Below are positions 47,994 through 60,316 of a stretch of 64,000 bases of DNA, one piece after another. The notes beneath the pieces are model-generated. The model was given only the letters and a program-made list of their open reading frames with translations, was not told where the DNA came from and made no database searches. This stretch comes from an uncultured Candidatus Poseidoniales archaeon (lineage in GTDB: Archaea > Thermoplasmatota > Poseidoniia > Poseidoniales > Poseidoniaceae). The stretch spans positions 141,951 through 205,950 of the forward strand of contig CACEWA010000001.1 in NCBI GenBank assembly GCA_902563095.1, written 5' to 3'. Position numbers and translations under genes: made by a program. Numbering within the stretch: position 1 is the first letter of the stretch; the number at the start of each line of letters is the position of its first letter.

Positions 47994-49184
47994 ATGACAA
48001 CAAGACTTGCAGTGCTATCGCGTGGTCCGCGATTGTACAGTACACGCCGTCTTGTTGAGGAAGCAAGATTGCGCGATATCGATGTAGCAGTCATCAATCC
48101 AATGCAATTTTCACTATTCGTTGCAGAGCAAGATATTGGAATTCTACACCAGGGTCAAAAATTCGATTTTGATGCCGTCATTCCCCGAATAGGTCACTCG
48201 ATTACCAAACACGGCGTAGCGGTATTGCGCCATTTGGAGCAACTCGATGTTTGGACTGCAAATACTAGCCAAGGTATTCTGCAAAGTAGAGATAAATTAC
48301 ATTCTTCGCAAATTCTAGCACGAAATAGAATCCCTACTCCAAGAACTGCTTATGTTCGCGATATGAAAGATATCGAGAGGGCTATTGAAGCTGTAGGCGG
48401 CTTGCCTGTAGTAGTAAAAGTCACACAGGGAACCCAAGGACAAGGCGTATTCCTAAGACATACTTTGCATGAAACAACCAATCTAGTTCAGGGATTGCTT
48501 GTGACTGGAAAAGCGGTATTGATCCAAGAGTACGTTGCAGAAAGTCACGGTAAAGACATCAGAGCATTGGTGGTAGGCGGGAAAGTCGTTGCCTGTATGC
48601 GCAGAAAGGCAAGAGGTAGAGAATTCCGCTCGAATTACCATCTCAATGGCACTGTAGAAAAAGTGGATATTTCGGAAGAATATGCAGATGTTGCATGTCG
48701 TGCTGCTAGAGTCCTCGGGCTGAATGTGGCTGGCGTGGATTTGCTAGAAGGCAATGATGGGCCACTGGTCTTGGAAGTAAATTCGTCTCCGGGACTAGAA
48801 GGTATTGAGAAAGCAAGTGGAGCAAATGTTGCTGGTGCGATTATCGATTATGTCATCGCTGAATCTGATTTCAATGAAGTCAATGTCGACCAATTACTCA
48901 AGACAATTCCTGGACAAGGTGTTCTTTCGGTTCATCTGCGCAATCACCCGCACCTAATCGGTTCTCCAATCAGTGAAATTTTCAAAGGCGAGATCCCTGT
49001 TTTCGCTTTATCTCGTGCTGGCGATTTGATTTGGAACCCTGAGCCAGAGATGCAACTTAGATTCGGCGACTCACTAATTTGCTATGGTGATTTAGAGCAA
49101 CTCAGAGCTAATATCAAGCGCAGAATACTCGACTTGCCATCTGTTTCGAAAACCGAAAGCGATGAACAAGACACTAACGCTTGA
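47994..49184 (+). CDS. RimK-family ATP-grasp ligase with TrkA-C/RCK_C-like C-terminal domain
   Basis: 'LPVVVKVTQGTQGQGVFLRHT', 'GKDIRALVVGGKVVACMRRKARGREFRSNYHLNG', 'VAGVDLLEGNDGPLVLEVNSSPGLEGIE'; tail 'LIGSPISEIFKGEIPVFALSRAGDLIWNPEPEMQLRFGDSLICYGDLEQL'. Confidence 0.88.
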   Translation: MTTRLAVLSRGPRLYSTRRLVEEARLRDIDVAVINPMQFSLFVAEQDIGILHQGQKFDFDAVIPRIGHSITKHGVAVLRHLEQLDVWTANTSQGILQSRDKLHSSQILARNRIPTPRTAYVRDMKDIERAIEAVGGLPVVVKVTQGTQGQGVFLRHTLHETTNLVQGLLVTGKAVLIQEYVAESHGKDIRALVVGGKVVACMRRKARGREFRSNYHLNGTVEKVDISEEYADVACRAARVLGLNVAGVDLLEGNDGPLVLEVNSSPGLEGIEKASGANVAGAIIDYVIAESDFNEVNVDQLLKTIPGQGVLSVHLRNHPHLIGSPISEIFKGEIPVFALSRAGDLIWNPEPEMQLRFGDSLICYGDLEQLRANIKRRILDLPSVSKTESDEQDTNA

Positions 49185-49187
49185 ATC

Positions 49188-49565
49188 TCAGAACCAAGGA
49201 ACTGGTATTGGTTGTCCAATGATTAATTCGATTAGTTTTCTTAACAGGACTGCAAAAAAGAGAATTATCACTCCTACAACAAAATATACTACACCATAAA
49301 TGAACTCAAGGATTGAAGTGTGTGAAAAAGATAATTCTGTCATCTGCATTACCATTGATTTGAGTAATCCACCGGATGATGGGTCTGCAATCATCAACAA
49401 CTCAACCAGTTTGTAGTAGATTAAAGTCAGCGTGTTCATCATGCTGCTCACTAAATTCTGGTATCGCTGTCTGAGATATAAAGGAAATTCCGGATTTAGA
49501 TCACAATCTAGTGATTTTGAATACCGATGATGTAACACTCGAAACTCCACGGTCTTTCTCATCAC
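49188..49565 (-). CDS. Hypothetical membrane protein; start uncertain
   Basis: 'SILEFIYGVVYFVVGVIILFFAVLLRKLIELI' hydrophobic segment; overlaps the next gene. Confidence 0.5.
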   Translation of the reverse strand: MMRKTVEFRVLHHRYSKSLDCDLNPEFPLYLRQRYQNLVSSMMNTLTLIYYKLVELLMIADPSSGGLLKSMVMQMTELSFSHTSILEFIYGVVYFVVGVIILFFAVLLRKLIELIIGQPIPVPWF

Positions 49566-50145
49566 TCACGTCAATTACCTCAAGGCGTTCAATTTCGAAT
49601 CCTTCAGAGAATAAACTGAACGCGTCCTCATCAGTCAGTGAAAAGGGCGGCCCATCCCCCTCATGCTGAGGGTAAGTGAGCGTAATAAGCAATCCGACAG
49701 CGCCGGGCTTGGTTTGCTGGCGAATCTGTTGAACATATGATTCACGAGTAGAAGGGGGAATCGCAACCATTGCAGCTCTATCATACCAGGCATCAGCCTG
49801 CACAGTGCCTGCTTCTAAGGCAAATACATCGCCTTGAAAAATTGTGAATGGAGGGCTAGAATGTTTCACTAGTTTGCCGAATTGGGTGCTTTCAGGTGAG
49901 AGTTGATTTTCGTTGAAGAAGGTATGAATCGCCTGCTCTACCATCTCTAGTCCGACTATCGAATAACCCTGTTCTGCCAACCAAAGCATATCCAGAGATT
50001 TACCGCATAGGGGGACCAATACTTCACTACCATCTGGAGCGTTAAGTGAGTGCCAATGCTTGACCATCAAATCGTTGTATTCGGCTCGGTGCCACCTAGT
50101 CAGTTGATTCTTCCAGCGGTCGTGCCAAAACGTCATGGTGAACAC
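49501..50145 (-). CDS. Thiopurine S-methyltransferase family (class I SAM-dependent)
   Basis: 'FWHDRWKNQLTRWHRAEYNDLMVKHWHSLNAPDGSEVLVPLCGKSLDMLWLAEQGYSIVGLEMVEQAIHTFF'. Confidence 0.9.
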   Translation of the reverse strand: MFTMTFWHDRWKNQLTRWHRAEYNDLMVKHWHSLNAPDGSEVLVPLCGKSLDMLWLAEQGYSIVGLEMVEQAIHTFFNENQLSPESTQFGKLVKHSSPPFTIFQGDVFALEAGTVQADAWYDRAAMVAIPPSTRESYVQQIRQQTKPGAVGLLITLTYPQHEGDGPPFSLTDEDAFSLFSEGFEIERLEVIDVSDEKDRGVSSVTSSVFKITRL

Positions 50146-50190
50146 TCAGTAGTTTTTGCAATTCATCTTGTTTGATAAAATCACAGGGCA

Positions 50191-50211
50191 CGGTGTGTCC
50201 TAGACCTATTT
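50191..50211. repeat. Left copy of 21-nt direct repeat CGGTGTGTCCTAGACCTATTT
   Basis: 19/21 identity with 57371-57391 (CGGTGTGTCCTTGGCCTATTT). Confidence 0.7.
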
Positions 50212-50214
50212 CAA

Positions 50215-50700
50215 CTAGTCTATCGGATTCAGGAAAGGCTTGCCAACTGATTCAATTCCACCCTGTTTGATGAATTTCTCATAATCTTGTAAGTGTTCCT
50301 TAGAATCAAGGATTGTGAATCGATAGGTCAAGTTTCCACGGATGAAATTGCGATTTAGCTCTCTCAGGAAGAGTTCTTTTCTGGCCATTCTCTGCAAATC
50401 CTCTGATGTAATTTCTCTAGAAATGTAACGCTCGAATACTAAAACACAGAATTTGTCACCACCAATTCCACCACTATGATGTGCTCTAAGTCTTTGCTTC
50501 AAACCCTTGATTTTATCTTTTTCGTAATCCTCTTCTCTTACATTAGTACCAGAGATTCCAACATAAGCAAATTCATCTCCATTCCAGATTGTGTACATTC
50601 CAATAGCAACTGTAGGAATCCCTTGATCTGGCCTTTTTGAAAAAGAGTATAGGGTGCCTGTTGTCAAATCATCAATCAATTTCTTGGGCAATTCAACCAT
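50215..50700 (-). CDS. GIY-YIG-domain protein (putative nuclease)
   Basis: 'AIGMYTIWNGDEFAYVGISGT...LKQRLRAHHSGGIGGDKFCVLVFERYI' GIY-YIG-like pattern. Confidence 0.7.
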   Translation of the reverse strand: MVELPKKLIDDLTTGTLYSFSKRPDQGIPTVAIGMYTIWNGDEFAYVGISGTNVREEDYEKDKIKGLKQRLRAHHSGGIGGDKFCVLVFERYISREITSEDLQRMARKELFLRELNRNFIRGNLTYRFTILDSKEHLQDYEKFIKQGGIESVGKPFLNPID

Positions 50701-50708
50701 ATTATCCC

Positions 50709-51197
50709 TCAGTAACCTATAATCGCTAGCCCTTTGATTCCCAAAGCTTCGAGTTTAGGTTCTAAGACTTTCATCTTCACAACACATCTTCGAAATGGCT
50801 CTTCAGCACCTTCTCGGGAAATTGTTGGAACAATAATTGCAGCATAGTCGATTTCATCAATTGCTATGAATTTGTAAAGATCTACATACAGTTGGTTTCC
50901 TAGCAGAATTCTGCCTTTTTCGATTTCGACGGCAATATTGTAATCTGGATGATATCCATCTAATATTGCTCGACCAGACTCGCCTAAACTGAATGTTTTC
51001 TTTGGCTCATATCCAATCATTTCCATGGGTTGGCCAGGTCCAATTAACAAACCCTCTATTGAGCTGCTGCGTACGTTCTTGGTATTTCTCAAAGCAACTA
51101 ACTCAACCTTTCTTTTGGCAACAGCTTCGCATAACTTCTCAATCGTGCCAGAAGGGAATTCCCCGAATACATGAGACAGAGGATATTCATCCGACAT
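50709..51197 (-). CDS. Putative PD-(D/E)XK restriction endonuclease (BglII/BstYI-like)
   Basis: 'GYHPDYNIAVEIEKGRILLGNQLYVDLYKFIAIDEIDYAAIIVP': catalytic-like D...ExExG followed by N-x-L-x-x-DL. Confidence 0.6.
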   Translation of the reverse strand: MSDEYPLSHVFGEFPSGTIEKLCEAVAKRKVELVALRNTKNVRSSSIEGLLIGPGQPMEMIGYEPKKTFSLGESGRAILDGYHPDYNIAVEIEKGRILLGNQLYVDLYKFIAIDEIDYAAIIVPTISREGAEEPFRRCVVKMKVLEPKLEALGIKGLAIIGY

Positions 51198-51287
51198 AAT
51201 TACTCCACGAACTCATTAGCTTTAGCTGCCAAGGTTTGATATTCGGAGTTATACAAAAATTAGAGAAATATGTTTCAGATTTGTATT

Positions 51288-51305
51288 CTACTACTATAGT
51301 AGTAG
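51288..51305. promoter_or_regulatory. Perfect 18-bp palindrome CTACTACTATAGTAGTAG
   Basis: Identical to its reverse complement; in the 400-bp gap between divergent endonuclease and HTH genes. Confidence 0.6.
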
Positions 51306-51337
51306 GCAAAAATCACCTCTTTCAAAGCCTTAATATG

Positions 51338-51379
51338 CCCTCGACTTTGAGGGTCTTATCCCGCAGTGGCAAGCGGGAT
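51338..51379. other. Two adjacent hairpins CCCTC-GACTTT-GAGGG and ATCCCGC-AGTGGCAA-GCGGGAT
   Basis: Perfect inverted repeats read directly from the sequence. Confidence 0.55.
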
Positions 51380-51504
51380 TACTAAACCAAGTGCCAAGGA
51401 TGTGAAGAAATTGACTAACCAGCTATACCAGCGAAAAACGATGCTAAACCGTGTAATAAAATGCAAAAATAGGGTGTTTCGAAGAATTCAGTGAAACAAC
51501 AGTT

Positions 51505-51552
51505 ATTTGTTAAATACAAATATAATTATTAAATAATTTGTATAATACAAAT
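51505..51552. promoter_or_regulatory. Two 17-nt inverted repeats (ATTTGTTAAATACAAAT and ATTTGTATAATACAAAT), putative operators of the HTH-jet operon
   Basis: Sites at 51505-51521 and 51536-51552, centres 31 bp apart, 45 bp upstream of the HTH start codon. Confidence 0.6.
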
Positions 51553-51596
51553 GACTGATTGAAACTATTATTAACCCCTCCTTATTCGGTGATGGT

Positions 51597-51851
51597 ATGG
51601 CGTTAGGTCCAAAGGAAATTGCAGAGTTACTGAAAATGCGTGCTCTTGGCTTTAGTCAAGCAGAAATCGCTGACAAACTCAAGACTACTCAGCAGAATAT
51701 TGCTTACCATCTGAAGAAGTTACGAGAGAAAGCTGAGAAGAATGGAACAGATGAAGCGTTCAATGCTGCATTGATCGGTGGCTTAGTTGGTGCTACTGCA
51801 GGTATTGCAACATTTGCACTTCTTGAACTGTTGAAGAATCAGAAAGAGTAG
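51597..51851 (+). CDS. Small HTH protein with C-terminal Gly-rich hydrophobic helix; first gene of the jet operon
   Basis: 'MRALGFSQAEIADKLKTTQQNIAYHLKKLREKA' HTH; 'AALIGGLVGATAGIATFALLELL' hydrophobic C-terminus. Confidence 0.75.
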   Translation: MALGPKEIAELLKMRALGFSQAEIADKLKTTQQNIAYHLKKLREKAEKNGTDEAFNAALIGGLVGATAGIATFALLELLKNQKE

Positions 51852-51859
51852 GTGAGGCC

Positions 51860-53098
51860 ATGTCAGAGCGAGTAAGAGATTTTATCGGGATCTTACAGAG
51901 CAACGTGGAACTTGTTAATGAAGTAGCAAAACTAGAATCGCACACTATCTCACATAAATATCTGGTAAACCTAATCGAACAACTATATTCTCCTCCTACA
52001 CCTGAAATTCTGCAAAATCGTTTGAAGCGGTTATCTAACTCAAAACCATTCCCAGTATTGAGTTATCAAGAAGAAACCGACGAGTTTTTGCTAGCTCCCA
52101 AAGTAGCGAATCTAGTTTTGTGGTTATCGAACAATCTTCATCTTGCCAGTCATAGAATCATAAAAGCTCTAATCGATGATATCAACGATGTTTGCGATTC
52201 TATTTCAGAGATTATTGAGGAACAACCAATCAATCTCTACATGCTGAAAGAAAGGATGAATCAGTTATCTAAATCCAATATTGAATTAGCGGAGTGTGCA
52301 GGTGGCAATCTACGTTCGATTGGAACTAAAGTTCAGGAATTCAAGGAAGAAATTCTTGATTTCGAAACAAAACAAATCAAGGCAAGGTTACTGATGGATG
52401 ATCACTTAACTCCAATGAGAGAAATAATTGATCCTGATGGACCTATGATTCATGCCCTTGAATCAGCAGCAAACAAATTGAGTCAAATTCAGTCAAGAAA
52501 TACAATACCTCTTTCTGACAGAGAAAATGCTTCAAATTTACAGAACAAACTAATCAATAATCAAAAGTCTGTTAGAGAAAATCACTGGTCAGCATACTCT
52601 CAATTGCAACCAATACTAGCGCCTTATTTGAGGCCAGCAAGCGATCTAGTAAAGGGGGCAAGTATTGCCCTTAGTATCATGAATAAACGGGGGGTTAAAT
52701 CACTTAAATTACACGAACACCTCAAGTTAACAAAATCAACTAGGCCTACAGGAATCTATGATGATGAACATTTAGAAATGTGGTTCCAAAGAAACAAATC
52801 GCGTGACTTTGTTGATGAGGAAATATCATTTGCACCAGGACTAATCAATGATTTGAAATTTGATATTCCCATAATTGGCTTAGCAGAAAAAATAGTTTCA
52901 GAGAGGCCAATAGAGGACTTGTTAGCGTATATCTTGGATGCAGAAAAATTCCAAAACCATACACTTTCAAACTGCAATAATGCTGCAACAGACATTCTAA
53001 TTGAGATTAATGACTTTGGAAAAATCAATGTTGGTGGAATCCAGCAATACCAGAGGGGAAATCAAAAACTTGAGGTGAGGAAAATTGCAATTGAATGA
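51860..53098 (+). CDS. jetA-like: JetA/MksF-like kleisin subunit of a Wadjet-like SMC complex
   Basis: Position upstream of JetB/JetC/JetD-like genes; N-terminal helical/winged-helix-like region followed by long helices, as in MukF/JetA. Confidence 0.65.
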   Translation: MSERVRDFIGILQSNVELVNEVAKLESHTISHKYLVNLIEQLYSPPTPEILQNRLKRLSNSKPFPVLSYQEETDEFLLAPKVANLVLWLSNNLHLASHRIIKALIDDINDVCDSISEIIEEQPINLYMLKERMNQLSKSNIELAECAGGNLRSIGTKVQEFKEEILDFETKQIKARLLMDDHLTPMREIIDPDGPMIHALESAANKLSQIQSRNTIPLSDRENASNLQNKLINNQKSVRENHWSAYSQLQPILAPYLRPASDLVKGASIALSIMNKRGVKSLKLHEHLKLTKSTRPTGIYDDEHLEMWFQRNKSRDFVDEEISFAPGLINDLKFDIPIIGLAEKIVSERPIEDLLAYILDAEKFQNHTLSNCNNAATDILIEINDFGKINVGGIQQYQRGNQKLEVRKIAIE

Positions 53099-53639
53099 AA
53101 ATTTACCCGAAATAAAGGATTTACTTTGGCAACTACTTCGTGGTAAGCACATCGATATAGAAGATAACAGGTATCAAGAAGTCGTAGATCGATTTGATGA
53201 GTTTAAATTAATATTGCATTCTCTAGGATTTGATTTGATTCACGATTCTATGGGCTTTTTTTATCTTCAAAGACCAAATAAGTCTGAAGAACGTATCACC
53301 TCAGCAAAGATTTGTACCTTGTTTTTCGTAATTGTTCAAAGATTACAGGAATGTAAAGAGGGGCATGAACCATTAGATTTTGCTTATCTCACAGATCGCA
53401 AGGGGTTTGATTTAGAAAATCTGATTTCTCATTCAAATTTGGACGATACTCTAAGTCGCTTATTGAAGGATATCGACTTGACTGATGATGCTAAAACCGA
53501 AGAAGTGCTTGATACAATGAAACGTATGAATCTAGTTGAAAGATTGCCAACAAATAATTGGAGATTCAGAAGGAGTATTGCACGTTTAGAACGTGTAGCC
53601 AGCAAGTATGCAAATTATAGTGAGGATGAAGAAGAATGA
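53085..53639 (+). CDS. jetB-like: JetB/MksE-like subunit
   Basis: 'IKDLLWQLLRGKHIDIEDNRYQEVVDRFDEFKLILHSLGFDLIHDSMGFFYLQ' resembles the MukE/DUF4194 N-terminus; ends in ATGA overlap with the next gene. Confidence 0.7.
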   Translation: MQLNENLPEIKDLLWQLLRGKHIDIEDNRYQEVVDRFDEFKLILHSLGFDLIHDSMGFFYLQRPNKSEERITSAKICTLFFVIVQRLQECKEGHEPLDFAYLTDRKGFDLENLISHSNLDDTLSRLLKDIDLTDDAKTEEVLDTMKRMNLVERLPTNNWRFRRSIARLERVASKYANYSEDEEE

Positions 53640-56350
53640 CTCGAAATGGACTCACTCGCCTGATTATGATAGGATCAGGGGTATCAGATTATGTTGAGAT
53701 TGAACCCTCAAAATCTACACATCTAGTTGCTGACAATAATATCGGAAAAACATCGATTTTGTCCACATTACAATTTTTGTTGATTGATGATTGGAAACAT
53801 ATGGATTTCCCAAAAAGTAGACTTGAAACCGAGGAGTTCTACTTCAAATCACGTAAAAGCCTGATCATTTTTGAGATTAAAGATGCTGAAGGTACAGAAC
53901 ACATGGTAATTTTTAGAGGTAATGGTTTAGCTAGCAATAAGAGATATACACGGTGGATAATGGGTGGACATTATGACAAATCAATATTTATTTCAGACAA
54001 TGAAGAGGGAGAACTAGTTCCAAATGATTGGGAGATCATTGTTGCGAATGCTGCCAACCAAAGAAGACCGATTGACGAATTCCGAACAGCCAATGACCTG
54101 AGAAAGAGATTACGCTCAAATCCCCGCTGGTTACCTACAATAGAAGGTACTGCACATAATAATTTCATTACTGTTTTGAAGACATTGAACACATTAGGAG
54201 AGGTCAAAGAAAAGAAGTTGAAACAAGTTCTACTCGATATTAATGAAAGCTTAGAGCTTAGCATGGACTTTTCTAAAGAGTTCGGGGTTCAATGGTACGA
54301 TTATCAAGAACGAAAATTATCCCACATCGAGATTAGTAAAAAATCAGAATCTATTGTAAAGGCTAAGCAATATGTTGAACAAAAGGCAGAAACACAAACA
54401 CGAATAATCGAAATGTTGAACGAAATTGGTCCAAGTATTGAATCATTGAGCAACAAGATGGATTCATTGAAAGAACATCATCAAAAAAATATAGTGGATG
54501 TGCAAAATGAACTAGCAGAATTAGAGTTAGAAAAAGGAAAGTTACAGGAGTCAGTTAGTAAATTGAATCGAGATCAGGGGGGCCTTGGTACACAAATTAG
54601 CCTCCATGAAAATATGGAGAAATGGGCTTCTGACAAAACAATCGTTTCATTAGAAAAATTGTCGAAAGACGCTGAAAAGGAATATTTTTCTTTGAAAAGT
54701 AGAGTGATGAAGGCTGAGTTACAGGAATATGAATCCTCAGAACGGATACAGGTTCAAATCCAGAAATATGAAACCGATGTGAGCAATCTCAAAACAGCCT
54801 TAGAAAATAAGCAACACACATTAATCGATAGTCTACAAAAACATAGTCTTGAATTCTCTCCAGATCCGTGGAAAGTATTGAATCCCCAGTTACTTATTCA
54901 AACAGGAGCCATTTCAAATCCCGATGAAACCAAGACGCTTCTTGATACTATTTCACGTTCAATAACAAATTTGTCATTGGATTATCACGGTATTAAGGTT
55001 GAATCTCTGGAGGGAGTTCAAGGATCTGGACAGTTCGACAATCCTGAGGAGATTCGTAATGAATATAATGACAAATTACGAATTTTAGAAGCCATGAGAG
55101 TTAGACTGAAAGATATCGAAAATTATGAGAAACTACAAGCAGAAATGGAGATTTGCGAAAAGGATTTCAACATGAAAAGAAAAGACGTTGAATCCATGAT
55201 GGAATGGGAAGAGAATGGAAAAACAAAGCTTGCAGAAAAGAGAGAAGAAATGATCAAACTCTTAGAAGATAAGAAAGAATCTGAGAAAGCAGTAATCTCA
55301 GTCGAAGAAAAGCACGGTAAAGTGAAAGCCAAATTAAGTCGAATGGAATCTGAATTAGGTCGTTTAGAGTCTAGAAATGGCAATGTTTTGCAAGACTGGA
55401 TGTCATTGCAACAGAAATTTATTCCAAACCTGGCTTTCAACGCAGAAGGTAAACTAGAACTTGAAGAGATTGAGGCTGAAATCTTCAAGCTACGCCAAAT
55501 TGAACGAAAATACGACAAGGCTGATAAGAAAGTCACTGAATATCAATTAGAGTTGTATTCTCTCTCCGCTCATGTCAGGAATCCGTCTAGTGAAGAGTTC
55601 TTCCCAATGATCTTTGAACGATTACAAAACCTTGAACTCGAGAAAGAAAATCTCGGCAAAGAATGGATAAATATCGCAACGAACATGGGCTCTAAAGCAA
55701 ATAATCTGAAGCAGAGTTTGAACAAATTGAGACAAGAAGTACATGACATTAACAAATTATTCAGGGGGACAAATGTTTCTAATCTGGATGAATTTAGTGT
55801 AGAATTTATTGAACATTCTAATGATGTTTCACTCATCAAAAATATCTCGAATCTGACTGCCTTTTCTGCATGGACAAAGGATGAGGATGAAGTTGCTGCA
55901 ATCAATAGCTTGGGAGATGCAATGACCTCAAGATCTTCGATTAATATTGCCGATTTATTCCACCTGCGATATAACGTGAAAAACAAGGGTAGTGAGAAAC
56001 AAATGGTAATCGATAATCTAGATGATTCAGGTTCCACTGGGACTGTGACAATTATCAAGGCTGTTTTGTTAATGATTTTACTTAAGAAGACGTTGAAATA
56101 CAAACAAAGGAGTAGAGTCCCATTACCAATATATCTCGATGAGGTTGGTATACTGGGGCCAAGGAATTACAACCAAATAATCGAAGTTTCAAATAGCCTT
56201 GGATTCCAGATATTTACTGCAAGTCCGAAATCTGTAGAAACTGCAGATGTAGTTTATCCTCTGATTGGAGGCAGAAGCAAAGATCGGCTCTTTGTGACTC
56301 CAGAATTTTCTAGGCCCAAGCCAACAACTTTGGGGGGAGAGGAAGAATGA
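53636..56350 (+). CDS. jetC-like: JetC/MksB-like SMC-type ATPase
   Basis: Walker A 'ADNNIGKTSILSTLQFLLI', long coiled coil, signature-like 'LDDSGSTGTVTIIKAVLLMILL', Walker B 'PLPIYLDEVGILGPRNYNQIIEVSNSLGFQIFTASP'. Confidence 0.8.
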   Translation: MTRNGLTRLIMIGSGVSDYVEIEPSKSTHLVADNNIGKTSILSTLQFLLIDDWKHMDFPKSRLETEEFYFKSRKSLIIFEIKDAEGTEHMVIFRGNGLASNKRYTRWIMGGHYDKSIFISDNEEGELVPNDWEIIVANAANQRRPIDEFRTANDLRKRLRSNPRWLPTIEGTAHNNFITVLKTLNTLGEVKEKKLKQVLLDINESLELSMDFSKEFGVQWYDYQERKLSHIEISKKSESIVKAKQYVEQKAETQTRIIEMLNEIGPSIESLSNKMDSLKEHHQKNIVDVQNELAELELEKGKLQESVSKLNRDQGGLGTQISLHENMEKWASDKTIVSLEKLSKDAEKEYFSLKSRVMKAELQEYESSERIQVQIQKYETDVSNLKTALENKQHTLIDSLQKHSLEFSPDPWKVLNPQLLIQTGAISNPDETKTLLDTISRSITNLSLDYHGIKVESLEGVQGSGQFDNPEEIRNEYNDKLRILEAMRVRLKDIENYEKLQAEMEICEKDFNMKRKDVESMMEWEENGKTKLAEKREEMIKLLEDKKESEKAVISVEEKHGKVKAKLSRMESELGRLESRNGNVLQDWMSLQQKFIPNLAFNAEGKLELEEIEAEIFKLRQIERKYDKADKKVTEYQLELYSLSAHVRNPSSEEFFPMIFERLQNLELEKENLGKEWINIATNMGSKANNLKQSLNKLRQEVHDINKLFRGTNVSNLDEFSVEFIEHSNDVSLIKNISNLTAFSAWTKDEDEVAAINSLGDAMTSRSSINIADLFHLRYNVKNKGSEKQMVIDNLDDSGSTGTVTIIKAVLLMILLKKTLKYKQRSRVPLPIYLDEVGILGPRNYNQIIEVSNSLGFQIFTASPKSVETADVVYPLIGGRSKDRLFVTPEFSRPKPTTLGGEEE

Positions 56351-57174
56351 GTCTTCCCAAGATTTTGAAAAAGATTCTTGATGATGGATATATTACAGGC
56401 TCTAAAATTCCTAAGTCTACTAAGTCAAGTGTGGATCAACTCGTCGCAATAAATGCCTTAGAACTGAACATTCTGAAAAGAGGTTCAAGATATTCAATAG
56501 GTAACGAAGAAATTTTCCAAGCGGAAATATCCGCTAGATATCCAGAAGGGTTAGAATCGGTAATAAATTTCAACTCTCATTCATCTAGGCACTTGGGAGT
56601 TAAATCCCTAAAAGATGCCAAATTATCTAGGAAAAAATACGCCACAGTACAAATGTTCGTCAATAGTCCATCTGAAGTATTTTTGAATGGTAAATCAATT
56701 CCCGATGGCATTGAATCATTTTCATTATCGGTGTTGGTAGATTCTTTGTGTAAATGGGAAATTAATGGTGACATTATCCTAATCGAGAATCAAGAACCTT
56801 ACCTGCGTTCTCAATCATTATTCAGTGGAGCAAGTGCAATAATTTGCTATAATGGAAGAGTAAATGAGAAAATATCAGAATGGATTAATGAATCAAATAT
56901 GAATGTTACAATCTGTCCAGATTATGATCCAGTAGGGCTAGATGAATATTGTAAACTAAAGTCCAAAATCGGAGAGAGACTCACTCTATTCCTGCCCGAA
57001 ACAATTACTGAAGACTTCAAGTATTCAACCTCTCAATTACTCGATAAGAAAAAAAATAGAGAAGTTTTGGTTAGAATAGCTAATGACAAAAATCTTGACA
57101 TGGATGCAATAAAAGTATTGAAACTGATTCAGAAATGGAATGCAGGTCTTATGCAGGAATTGTATTTTGAGTAA
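56347..57174 (+). CDS. jetD-like: JetD/MksG-like Toprim nuclease subunit
   Basis: Toprim motifs 'DIILIENQEPYL' and 'VTICPDYDPVGLDEYCKLK', with intervening 'GASAIICYNGRVNEKISEWI'; ATGA overlap with jetC-like. Confidence 0.72.
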   Translation: MSLPKILKKILDDGYITGSKIPKSTKSSVDQLVAINALELNILKRGSRYSIGNEEIFQAEISARYPEGLESVINFNSHSSRHLGVKSLKDAKLSRKKYATVQMFVNSPSEVFLNGKSIPDGIESFSLSVLVDSLCKWEINGDIILIENQEPYLRSQSLFSGASAIICYNGRVNEKISEWINESNMNVTICPDYDPVGLDEYCKLKSKIGERLTLFLPETITEDFKYSTSQLLDKKKNREVLVRIANDKNLDMDAIKVLKLIQKWNAGLMQELYFE

Positions 57175-57185
57175 ATAACTCATAC

Positions 57186-57389
57186 TTACTTGTAAGCTAA
57201 AATTCGGGAAACTTGTTTGTGTGACCATTTTCCTCCACGCTTAGTTGGAACTCCACAAGTGTTCAATTCTCTTGCGATTTGAGAGATTGAGATGTCATCC
57301 TCATGATATCGCACCTTGATGTATTCAATCCAATACTGTTCTTTTTCATTTTCAACGAAGTTGTTGTCCTCGGTGTGTCCTTGGCCTAT
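57186..57389 (-). pseudogene. Serine-recombinase-type C-terminal HTH fragment, in frame with and immediately after the UAA of the upstream endonuclease gene; absent from the ORF track
   Basis: Minus-strand translation IGQGHTEDNNFVENEKEQYWIEYIKVRYHEDDISISQIARELNTCGVPTKRGGKWSHKQVSRILAYK-stop; 'IARELNxxGVPTKRGGKWSHKQVSRIL' matches the recombinase/invertase HTH pattern. Confidence 0.75.
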
Positions 57390-57391
57390 TT
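57371..57391. repeat. Right copy of 21-nt direct repeat CGGTGTGTCCTTGGCCTATTT
   Basis: 19/21 identity with 50191-50211. Confidence 0.7.
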
Positions 57392-58157
57392 AAGTCATAA
57401 TATATCTAGCACTTTTGACCAGTCTTATGCTATTATAGTCGTATTCATCTGTAAACTCATACATCCAAAACATATACTCAAATCCACGTTTTTCGAAGAA
57501 CAAAGGAAGTACTTGCTTTGTGGTATCCTTAGACCACTTTCTGTACGGATAGTATAGTTGCCTAATGATGACATCCTTCATTTTCACATTCTTGCCTTCA
57601 ATCAATATAACGTGATTCTTGCCTTCATATCCAGCATCAACTTCAGTTTGAACACTCTTTTGTTCGACTAAAGTATTACGAACTCTGAAAGAAAATTCGG
57701 GCGTATATTTTCTCCCTCTTATTGTGAGATATAGTTTCCCAACTCCTGCAAAATGCTCAATCATTCCAGTTGCATACGCAAAATCAAGATGTTGCATTTC
57801 AGAGTTTCCTACTAAGGATGATTCTATTGGGAAATCTAATTTTGCATCATACAGTATTGGTTCTGAATTTATCTCGGGAATATCGGTATATCCCTGGCCC
57901 TTGATAATGGCATAATAACCATTTTTTACAGGTAATAGAAACAGGTTTTTCTCATTAAAAACTTGAGGTTTGTCTTTCTTTTGGGCTTGATAACATAAAA
58001 TTCGAACTTCCTTTTCTGCAGTTTTTTTGAAATCCTGGCATGCTGTTTTGATTTGTTTCGCAGTAATGTAGAAAGGCTCTTTGTCAAAATCATGATTGTG
58101 TATGTCGTATGCATCAAATATGGCCAACCAAGGAATATCTTTAGAGGGGTTGCCCAT
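57390..58157 (-). CDS. Putative type II restriction endonuclease (PD-(D/E)XK-like), partner of the adjacent Dam-type methylase
   Basis: 'VQTEVDAGYEGKNHVILIEGKNVKMKDVIIRQLYYPYRKW' (E-x-D...(I)E-x-K); upstream gene is an adenine methylase on the same strand. Confidence 0.7.
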   Translation of the reverse strand: MGNPSKDIPWLAIFDAYDIHNHDFDKEPFYITAKQIKTACQDFKKTAEKEVRILCYQAQKKDKPQVFNEKNLFLLPVKNGYYAIIKGQGYTDIPEINSEPILYDAKLDFPIESSLVGNSEMQHLDFAYATGMIEHFAGVGKLYLTIRGRKYTPEFSFRVRNTLVEQKSVQTEVDAGYEGKNHVILIEGKNVKMKDVIIRQLYYPYRKWSKDTTKQVLPLFFEKRGFEYMFWMYEFTDEYDYNSIRLVKSARYIMT

Positions 58158-58192
58158 ATCTTGGTCACTCAGTTCTGATATTAGAACTAATT

Positions 58193-59080
58193 CTAATAAT
58201 TCTTAATCAGTAATTCACTGATTTTTCCTCTTCTGTCTGGGTTGCTGTTAATTGCTCTACTGGCAAACACTCTATCAATATCAAAATCTCTGTAGAGTTC
58301 ATCAAAGAATTCGTCATCTTCAACAGTATTCTTAGGATCTGAATTGGAAAGTAAGAATAACACATCCTTCTTATGAAGTTCTTTTGTTAAAGATGCTAAT
58401 TCTGCTTGATTTTCATCATTAAAATCACCTTTGGAATATGAAATAAAGCTTGATGTTTTTGACAAAGGCCTGTAAGGTGGATCAAAGTAAACAAAACTCT
58501 TGTCATCGACCCATTCGAGACATTTTTCATATGAGGCGTGATGAATTATTACGCCTTTTAACGCTTGATTAACTTCTTTTAGAGATTCAGCTGAGGGAAA
58601 AGAGGGATTCTTATATCGGCCTGTCGGTACATTGAATTTACCACTTCGGTTCAAACGGAATAATCCATTGAAACATGTTTTGTTTAGAAATATCATCTGT
58701 GCAACGCGTGATGACCTTTCTTCATCAGTCATCGATTCAATATCGAGATTTGAGTTCCATAAGTCTCTAATTTTATAGAAATAATCACTCCTCTCTTCAG
58801 TGGTCGATGGAAACTCATCAACCAATTTCTCTAATGATGATATCACATCATTTACAGAAGATTGTAATTGCCTGTAACATAATACTAATTCCAAGTTGAT
58901 ATCTGAGATGTGAATTTGTTTGAAATTGTAATTTTCCAACATGTGAAAAAGCAAAGCGCCACCTCCTATGAAGGGCTCAACATAAGTCTCAACCTCATTT
59001 ATTTCTGAAGGGAGCCTCTTTTCAATCTCCGAAATCAACTGACGTTTACCACCCGCCCACTTCAGAAATGGTTTCGCCAT
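58193..59080 (-). CDS. DNA adenine methyltransferase (Dam/D12 class)
   Basis: 'KPFLKWAGGKRQLISEI', 'YVEPFIGGGALLFHML', catalytic 'FVYFDPPYRPLSKTSSFISYSKGDF'. Confidence 0.93.
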   Translation of the reverse strand: MAKPFLKWAGGKRQLISEIEKRLPSEINEVETYVEPFIGGGALLFHMLENYNFKQIHISDINLELVLCYRQLQSSVNDVISSLEKLVDEFPSTTEERSDYFYKIRDLWNSNLDIESMTDEERSSRVAQMIFLNKTCFNGLFRLNRSGKFNVPTGRYKNPSFPSAESLKEVNQALKGVIIHHASYEKCLEWVDDKSFVYFDPPYRPLSKTSSFISYSKGDFNDENQAELASLTKELHKKDVLFLLSNSDPKNTVEDDEFFDELYRDFDIDRVFASRAINSNPDRRGKISELLIKNY

Positions 59081-59252
59081 ATCTTTTTGTCAATGTCGGT
59101 CGTTATTGAAGTCAACGATTATTCATCACTGTAGCCAGTGGTTTTGAGTGTCGATAGGTAGTTGGTTGGTGGCGGGTGTTTGAATGGTTTCAGCACACCG
59201 TCTGAGGGATAACGCGCGAAGCCTTGATGTATTGGAGCCCTAACTGCGTGAT

Positions 59253-59288
59253 GTCCTTCGGGACACGGGATGCACGCCGCTTCGGCGG
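59253..59288. other. Tandem UUCG-tetraloop hairpins GTCC-TTCG-GGAC and CCGC-TTCG-GCGG upstream of or overlapping the xer start
   Basis: Both hairpins perfect; lie before the ATG at 59306. Confidence 0.6.
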
Positions 59289-59305
59289 TTAAGGTGGTAA
59301 CACCA

Positions 59306-60316
59306 ATGAGAACAGGGCCATACAATGCTAGGCAAAAAGCCGTACAGCAGCGTCTGTACGGAGAGGGGCCAGAGCTACCGCCGCGTCTTGTAAATAGGGG
59401 GCATCTCTGCTGGCTAAACTCCTACACTACTCAGTTACAGGCTGAAGGTAAATCAGTCAATACTCAGAAGTCGTACATGATTGGACTGCGCCATCTTATC
59501 GAGACTCCATTACCTGGAGAAGATATTCTCAGTGAATTCGAAAGAGATTCAATGAGTGTTCAACAACTCCTAGAAAGAATCGAGCCATTCAACGGTAGAT
59601 TAGACATCTGGGTAAACTCGATGATCGACAAATCACCATCCACTGTAAAAGCAAGATTAGCCGCTGCTAACCATTTAATCAATTGGCTAGGACAGAAATG
59701 GCCTGAGCACCTAGTTAGGCCAAAGAGCGGAAAGAAGTTGCCACGAACTCTCACCAGTCGAGAATTGACTATGGTAAAGCATGCAGCATCATGCAGTGAA
59801 GACCCACTAGCGAATCTAGTAGTCACAATGATTCTTGATACTGGTCTGCGAGTGAGTGAAATTTGTGACTTAGAACTTTCAAACATTGACCTTGATGATA
59901 ATTCTGCAATGGTCATTGACGGTAAGGGAGGAAAGGATAGACTGGTTCTGTTTACCGATTCAACCGTAGCCAGCATCGAAAGTTGGCTACCACTTAGGGA
60001 ATCGAGAAATCCAATCGGAGACCATCTCCTTGTTACTAAGAGAGGTAATGCTCTACAATCTAGAAGCGTTCAGCGCTTGATGGATAAGTTAGCGGACGAA
60101 GCCGGAATGCCGAGAGGGAGATTGACTCCTCACGTCTTACGACACAACTTCGCTACCGGTCTATTGGAGAGAGGTGCTGATTTAGTTAGTATTCAAAGGC
60201 TGCTTGGTCATGCTAGCATCGCTACTACCAGAGTGTACCTAGAAATTAGTGACCAAACTCTGAGAGAGATCTACAAGCGTGCAACTTCTATTGAAGTTGA
60301 AGAAGACGAATCATGA
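59306..60316 (+). CDS. xerA: Xer-family tyrosine recombinase (XerA-like)
   Basis: 'LDTGLRVSEICDLELSNIDLDDNSAMVIDGKGGKDRLVLF', 'LTPHVLRHNFATGLLERGADLVSIQRLLGHASIATTRVYLEIS' (R..HxxR..Y). Confidence 0.92.
   Translation: MRTGPYNARQKAVQQRLYGEGPELPPRLVNRGHLCWLNSYTTQLQAEGKSVNTQKSYMIGLRHLIETPLPGEDILSEFERDSMSVQQLLERIEPFNGRLDIWVNSMIDKSPSTVKARLAAANHLINWLGQKWPEHLVRPKSGKKLPRTLTSRELTMVKHAASCSEDPLANLVVTMILDTGLRVSEICDLELSNIDLDDNSAMVIDGKGGKDRLVLFTDSTVASIESWLPLRESRNPIGDHLLVTKRGNALQSRSVQRLMDKLADEAGMPRGRLTPHVLRHNFATGLLERGADLVSIQRLLGHASIATTRVYLEISDQTLREIYKRATSIEVEEDES

What the first reader, a model, noticed from the sequence alone, without database searches (positions are those of the whole stretch)
51597..57174. 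Wadjet-like (JetABCD / MksFEBG) SMC operon in a probable Poseidoniales archaeon
Seen directly: four co-directional, overlapping ORFs (412, 184, 904, 275 aa) with ATGA overlaps between genes 2-3 and 3-4. Gene 3 has Walker A, a long coiled coil, a signature-like SGSTGT and Walker B YLDE. Gene 4 has a Toprim-like ExxE / DYD-P-x-G pattern. Established knowledge: Wadjet is an operon of JetA (kleisin, MukF-like), JetB (MukE-like), JetC (SMC ATPase, MukB-like) and JetD (Toprim nuclease) that cleaves small circular plasmids. Inference: this is a divergent archaeal Wadjet or a sister family. It is the best candidate for the undescribed system in this window.
Basis: partly seen in the sequence, partly recalled or inferred. 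Interest (0 to 1): 0.88.

Follow-up and report, generated by a model that had tools for sequence, protein, structure and literature searches.

The report
Archaeal Wadjet-like operon with shared regulator
A marine archaeon carries a compact DNA-looping, DNA-cutting operon of the anti-plasmid Wadjet/MksBEFG kind, and it is headed by a small DNA-binding, probably membrane-bound protein that related archaea place, together with its own matching DNA switch site, in front of many different nucleases.

Summary
The four ORFs are real and form a divergent, compact MksFEBG (Wadjet-like) operon. Gene 2 is MukE/MksE-like (PF21980, 1.7e-19), gene 3 a MksB/JetC-like SMC ATPase with intact motifs, gene 4 a winged-helix plus Toprim protein with invariant catalytic residues. 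Gene 1 is a kleisin by position only. The set falls below PADLOC's Wadjet I-III models and the nuclease lacks DUF3322, so no type is assigned. Function (restricting circular DNA) is inferred.

It occurs in 38 of 324 genomes of this archaeal order. In 14 of 18 locus groups with readable downstream sequence it heads a nuclease or defence gene: Mks (twice), NYN, PIN, HNH, PLD nuclease, type I R-M (fusion), PbeA-like helicase. Before it lies a palindrome, TTTGTATWATACAAA (51537-51551). Among 27 genus genomes the exact palindrome occurs only twice, both at this gene; in divergent members it changes symmetrically along with the recognition helix. I read it as an autoregulatory switch shared by exchangeable defence cassettes, analogous to bacterial BrxR, RptR and CapS.

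The parts
51537..51551 (.). Palindrome TTTGTATAATACAAA, putative operator of the leader gene
   Evidence: Exact pattern only in G000 and G023 among 27 genus genomes, both before the leader; 16 of 17 leader genomes with up to 1 mismatch
51597..51851 (+). Leader gene, 84 aa: HTH domain (about 10-49) plus hydrophobic Gly-rich segment (58-76)
   Evidence: HTH hits; hydropathy about 2.0 over 19 residues in all 14 members; family alignment A9
51860..53098 (+). MksF/JetA-position protein, 412 aa, presumed kleisin
   Evidence: Position; homologue in G437 1.5e-5; fold inconclusive
53085..53639 (+). MksE/JetB KITE subunit, 184 aa
   Evidence: PF21980 1.7e-19; MukE structures by profile 4e-8
53636..56350 (+). 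MksB/JetC SMC-like ATPase, 904 aa
   Evidence: NF040859 1e-16; JetC1 2.6e-6; motifs invariant
56347..57174 (+). MksG/JetD Toprim nuclease, 275 aa, N-terminal winged helix
   Evidence: DUF7281 4.6e-4; invariant E147, D192, D194, E271; model resembles JetD 7til and Topo VIA weakly
50215..51197 (-). Two small genes upstream in the same insert (50215-50700 weak GIY-YIG; 50709-51197 no match)
57390..59080 (-). Type II R-M-like pair: DUF6996/DUF6997 restriction-type protein and D12 (Dam-type) adenine methyltransferase
49185..59269 (.). Variable insert between a RimK/ATP-grasp-like gene (47994-49184) and a tyrosine recombinase gene (59270-60316)
   Evidence: The gap is about 75-320 bp in six genus relatives and 1.3-4.5 kb with other cargo in three

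Best explanation
A five-gene operon with one promoter. The first product is a small HTH protein that probably sits in the membrane through its C-terminal hydrophobic segment. It binds the palindrome at 51537-51551 beside the promoter and represses the operon; infection or plasmid entry would release it (release signal unknown). The next four genes make a compact MksFEBG complex: the SMC ATPase (MksB) with kleisin (MksF) and KITE (MksE) extrudes DNA loops, and the Toprim subunit (MksG) cuts DNA once a small circle has been fully extruded, as described for Wadjet. Shown here: gene order, homology of three subunits, intact catalytic residues, the leader-operator pairing, and its association with other nucleases. 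Inferred: kleisin role, repression, membrane location, loop extrusion, plasmid cleavage, release signal.
For: KITE, SMC and Toprim homology. Same gene order in G437, Salinibacter, Salinivenus, Polaromonas, Halioglobus, Pseudomonas and Neptuniibacter. The leader precedes Mks in two families of the order at 71% identity while the Mks proteins are only 17-24% identical. The palindrome occurs exactly in 2 of 27 genus genomes, both at the leader; with up to one mismatch it lies 42-60 bp before the leader in 16 of 17 leader-bearing genomes (control pattern: 2 places); the 5 other sites sit at a contig end or in or beside unrelated genes. Palindrome variants are symmetric and follow the recognition helix: SQQ with GTAT..ATAC, SRQ with GCAT..ATGC, SKSS with AGGAAATATTCCT, SQPS with CCTATCAWTGATAGG. 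In 10 loci tested on both sides, nuclease or defence genes follow the leader in 8 and precede it in 0. The island is absent from relatives at the same site and has 35-37% GC within about 45%. Extrusion-and-cleavage model from PMC10586767.
Against: The kleisin fold was not shown (model pLDDT 53.5; MukBEF chains only at ranks 29 and 37, E about 0.4). The Toprim model is modest (pLDDT 65.5; JetD hit at E=0.016, rank 4, below plain winged-helix proteins). One of the two C-terminal glutamates discussed for JetD is Met in the window (LMQE against EQE). No expression, binding or plasmid data. Repression rather than activation is not shown; the window's palindrome lies about 16 bp further upstream than in its closest relatives. 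Four of 18 leader locus groups have no recognisable nuclease behind them.
Confidence: 0.72

Rival explanations
1. The leader and the downstream nuclease form toxin-antitoxin-like pairs: the HTH protein is an antitoxin that binds both its promoter and the nuclease and blocks it until infection.
For: Small DNA-binding first gene, nuclease second gene, short spacing, autoregulatory-looking palindrome; several partners are NYN or PIN RNases.
Against: Partners include whole multi-gene systems (Mks, HNH two-gene locus, PbeA-like) and an in-frame HTH-HsdM fusion. A specific antitoxin would be expected to diverge with its toxin, yet leaders of unrelated partners stay 50-71% identical.
Confidence: 0.15
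2. The Mks genes act as a chromosome-organising condensin (like MksBEF of Pseudomonas), not as a defence system.
For: MksE-type KITE and SMC length match the MksBEF models; a condensin role is documented for P. aeruginosa MksBEF (PMC10586767).
Against: The Toprim nuclease is present with intact residues. The operon occurs in 2 of 294 genomes of the order searched with PF21980 and only here in its family, in a low-GC insert next to an R-M pair, as expected of a defence gene and not of a housekeeping condensin.
Confidence: 0.1
3. The operator and leader belong to a mobile element whose regulator happens to carry along cargo nucleases; the leader does not regulate immunity as such.
For: Sporadic distribution; insertion next to a tyrosine recombinase gene here and a resolvase gene in L106.
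Against: Insertion sites differ (beside enolase, DHFR, NDK, glyoxalase genes). No shared transposase, and no relative on viral contigs. The recombinase beside the window insert is also present in relatives without the insert.
Confidence: 0.1

Closest known systems
MksBEFG / Wadjet (JetABCD)
   Same: Four co-directional genes in the order F-E-B-G; KITE, SMC ATPase and Toprim subunits with conserved catalytic residues.
   Different: Compact: SMC 904 aa (PADLOC JetC models seen here 1068-1473), nuclease 275 aa (JetD models 387-430) without DUF3322; JetA, JetB and JetD match no PADLOC model; archaeal; extra HTH leader gene.
MksBEF condensin of Pseudomonas
   Same: MksE-type KITE (PF21980) and SMC of similar length (NF040859, 926 positions).
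   Different: A Toprim nuclease gene is present here; sporadic island gene, not a conserved chromosomal one.
BrxR WYL regulators, RptR, CapK/CapS (PMC9122601, PMC12255303, PMC13373217)
   Same: Regulators encoded in front of diverse bacterial defence operons, with repeat or palindromic sites in the promoter region.
   Different: 84 aa, no WYL domain, C-terminal hydrophobic segment, essentially confined to one archaeal order, 15-bp palindrome that varies by subfamily.
Tfx family of DNA-binding proteins (TIGR00721)
   Same: HTH similarity (E=3.2e-7, residues 10-49).
   Different: Half the family cut-off (30 against 60 bits); different C-terminal part.

Membership tests
MksBEFG / Wadjet superfamily | Four-gene kleisin-KITE-SMC-Toprim operon on one strand | tested here: met
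   Same order in the window and in relatives with four genes
MksBEFG / Wadjet superfamily | KITE (MukE-like) subunit | tested here: met
   PF21980 1.7e-19, 71 bits over a 27-bit cut-off; MukE chains by profile 4e-8
MksBEFG / Wadjet superfamily | SMC-like ATPase with Walker A, signature and Walker B | tested here: met
   Motifs invariant in 7 operons; NF040859 1e-16, below its equivalog cut-off
MksBEFG / Wadjet superfamily | Toprim nuclease with catalytic Glu and DxD | tested here: met
   E147, D192, D194, E271 invariant; Salinibacter homologue hits JetD1 1.5e-7 and JetD_C 1.3e-4; model weakly matches JetD and Topo VIA
MksBEFG / Wadjet superfamily | Kleisin subunit | tested here: inconclusive
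   No profile hit; low-confidence model
MksBEFG / Wadjet superfamily | Restriction of small circular DNA | not testable with these tools
   Needs an experiment
Wadjet types I, II, III as modelled by PADLOC | All four subunits match one type's models | tested here: not met
   Only the SMC matches, partially (JetC1 2.6e-6); no hit for the other three
MksG as DUF3322 + DUF2220 (PMC10123090) | Both domains detected | tested here: not met
   DUF7281 at 4.6e-4 instead; 275 aa with N-terminal winged helix
BrxR (WYL) defence regulators | WYL domain in the leader | tested here: not met
   Only HTH families match the 84-aa leader
Tfx family (TIGR00721) | Score above the family cut-off | tested here: not met
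   30.3 against 60.25 bits

The most novel reading that the evidence does not exclude
An order of marine archaea uses one family of small HTH, probably membrane-anchored proteins, each with its own co-evolving 15-bp palindrome, as a common switch in front of exchangeable immune effectors (Mks/Wadjet-like, NYN and PIN RNases, HNH and PLD nucleases, type I R-M, Pbe-like). The membrane segment may sense infection, and the unknown genes behind the leader (for example the 104-106-aa family in L039 and L065) would be candidate new defence genes.
Probability: 0.5. Interest if true: 0.8.

Novelty: new variant of a known kind. Interest (0 to 1): 0.66.

Why it matters
A text search for defence systems in Poseidoniales found only three papers, none about these archaea's own systems, and Wadjet with Thermoplasmatota found none. 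The window shows a compact Mks/Wadjet-like system that PADLOC's type models would miss. The leader with its operator gives a handle: a 15-bp site and an 84-aa marker that point to further defence genes across the order, including unknown ones, and a testable case of one regulator family adopted by many unrelated defence systems in archaea.

Tried and rejected
Scans of genome and viral contigs with the single SMC protein found nothing; a pair alignment found only Salinivenus; viral scans with SMC alignments and with the leader found none. PDB sequence searches gave nothing for the SMC or Toprim subunits (one search returned only coiled-coil matches). I considered that the two archaeal Mks operons might be independent captures from bacteria: trees of MksB and MksG leave the window and G437 unresolved with long branches, so I do not claim it. 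A palindrome-versus-shuffle test per locus was uninformative because these promoters are AT-rich; the genome-wide pattern counts are the useful test. I considered a wider regulon: extra sites are at a contig end or in or beside unrelated genes. Rad50/SbcC and Lamassu: LmuB hits are weak, coiled-coil matches, and a KITE plus Toprim pair does not fit them.

Full report
Observation. The four ORFs exist as described, with ATGA overlaps between genes 2-3 and 3-4. A fifth gene, 51597-51851, lies 8 bp before gene 1 and is inside the reported coordinates.

What the four genes are. Gene 2 matches MksE (PF21980, 1.7e-19, above cut-off) and DUF4194 weakly; a profile of eight homologues finds MukE structures at 4e-8. 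Gene 3 matches NF040859, the NCBI Mks condensin model of 926 positions, at 1e-16 and PADLOC JetC1 at 2.6e-6. Gene 4 matches DUF7281 at 4.6e-4. Its Salinibacter homologue hits DUF7281 (7e-7), JetD_C (1.3e-4) and PADLOC JetD1 (1.5e-7). Its G437 homologue hits DUF2399 (7.5e-4). A five-row AlphaFold2 model shows a confident N-terminal winged helix and a Toprim-like strand-helix pattern with E147 and D192/D194 at strand ends; Foldseek lists Pseudomonas JetD (7til) at rank 4 and topoisomerase VI at rank 5 with weak E-values. Catalytic E236 and D279, and E349/E351, of C. glutamicum MksG are described in PMC10123090. By motif I equate them with E147, the DYD motif and the C-terminal EQE; the window has MQE. 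Gene 1 has no profile match; its model is poor, so the kleisin role rests on position and on recurrence in relatives.

Relatives. In its own family (174 genomes) only this genome has the SMC gene. In the phylum sample one more genome, G437, of the same order, has a complete operon at 24% identity in the SMC. PF21980 rings in 2 of 294 order genomes. Bacterial relatives with four genes lie on plasmids of Salinibacter, Polaromonas, Halioglobus, Pseudomonas amygdali and Neptuniibacter and in Salinivenus genomes, annotated as hypothetical where annotated. Parabacteroides has a three-gene version without an adjacent nuclease gene. Trees leave the window and G437 unresolved.

Setting. The operon lies in a roughly 10-kb low-GC insert (35-37% against about 45%) between a RimK-like gene and a tyrosine recombinase gene. 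In six genus relatives these two genes are 75-320 bp apart; in three others the gap holds different cargo, including a NERD protein. The same insert carries a type II R-M-like pair (DUF6996/6997 protein and D12 methyltransferase) and two further small genes.

The leader gene. The 84-aa protein has an HTH domain and a conserved hydrophobic Gly-rich segment. Its closest relatives sit in front of unrelated genes: Mks in the window and G437; NYN RNases in G023, G085, G158 (just under the Pfam cut-off), G120 and the g21 group; PIN7 in G068; HNH proteins in G149, G525 and, as second gene, G049; a PLD-type nuclease in G522; an in-frame HTH-HsdM fusion in G164 (PADLOC MTase_I 3.9e-40); and a divergent HTH protein two genes before a PbeA-like helicase (4e-42) in G525. 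Without a recognisable nuclease: a 104-106-aa family (G542, G500), small genes in G021 and G530, and a divergent branch in g16/g22. That is 14 of 18 locus groups with readable downstream sequence; the grouping is mine. In 10 loci tested on both sides, 8 downstream and 0 upstream neighbours are nuclease or defence genes, one-sided Fisher p about 4e-4 by my arithmetic. The family was found in 38 of 324 genomes of the order and once, weakly, outside it in the phylum sample; no relative was found on viral contigs.

The operator. Upstream regions share a 15-bp palindrome. TTTGTATWATACAAA occurs exactly in 2 of 27 genus genomes, each once, 44-60 bp before the leader. With one mismatch allowed, 16 of 17 leader-bearing genomes have it directly before the leader; the reversed control pattern gives 2 places in all. 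Five further sites lie at a contig end or in or beside unrelated genes. Divergent members carry symmetric variants: TTGGTATAATACCAA (L063), TTGGCATTATGCCAA (L070), TTTGCATTATGCAAA (L101), TAGGAAATATTCCTA (L104 and L073), CCTATCAWTGATAGG (L072, L074, L075, L110). The recognition-helix letters change with them: SQQ, SRQ, SKSS, SQPS. Both arms changing together is what a dimeric DNA-binding protein's own site would do.

Mechanism. The regulation is inferred from sequence; the enzymology is inferred from the family.

Comparison with the known. The operon works like Wadjet/MksBEFG in anatomy and is a compact, divergent member of that superfamily if gene 1 is a kleisin; it is not a match to Wadjet types I-III as modelled. 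Bacterial regulators in front of diverse defence systems are known: BrxR, RptR, CapK/CapS. The archaeal family here lacks the WYL domain and I found no description of it in five text searches, which cover open-licence papers only.

Limits. Several leader loci end at contig ends. The 15-bp site was recognised from the same loci it is then described on; the genome-wide counts and the symmetric variants are the independent support.

Noticed in passing
window 57390-59080: Convergent type II R-M-like pair (DUF6996/DUF6997 protein, PADLOC REase_II 2.2e-28, and D12/Dam-type methyltransferase) in the same insert.
   Followed up: partly
window 50215-51197: Two small adjacent genes, one with a weak GIY-YIG match, the other without any match; perhaps a further nuclease locus.
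   Followed up: partly
window 49185-59269; L020, L021, L022: Insertion hot spot between a RimK-like gene and a tyrosine recombinase gene, with different cargo in relatives (NERD protein in L021, acyl-CoA dehydrogenase-like gene in L020) or none.
   Followed up: partly
L106:2341-2943: Leader-type HTH domain fused in frame to an HsdM N-terminus (type I R-M), next to a serine recombinase gene.
   Followed up: yes
L107:1-5188 (- strand): Divergent HTH at the start of a 330-aa protein, followed by a 356-aa unknown and a PbeA-like helicase (4e-42).
   Followed up: partly
L039:365-679 and L065:283-603 (-): A 104-106-aa family of unknown function directly behind the leader in two genera; candidate new defence gene.
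   Followed up: no
L069:9221-11239 (-): 672-aa protein with an NgoFVII-type PLD nuclease domain and a C-terminal half with a P-loop-like GAAGNGKT motif, behind the leader.
   Followed up: no
L071, L072, L074, L075, L110: Divergent leader branch with the palindrome CCTATCAWTGATAGG and no nuclease behind it; perhaps the chromosomal ancestor of the switch.
   Followed up: partly
window 56347-57174, residues 268-271: LMQE where most relatives have LEQE: one of two C-terminal glutamates discussed for JetD/MksG is Met.
   Followed up: partly
L120 (G074 contig C94 end): Exact operator palindrome at a contig end, probably a second leader locus cut off by the assembly.
   Followed up: partly
L012: Three-gene MksFEB-like operon without an adjacent nuclease gene on a Parabacteroides plasmid record.
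   Followed up: no
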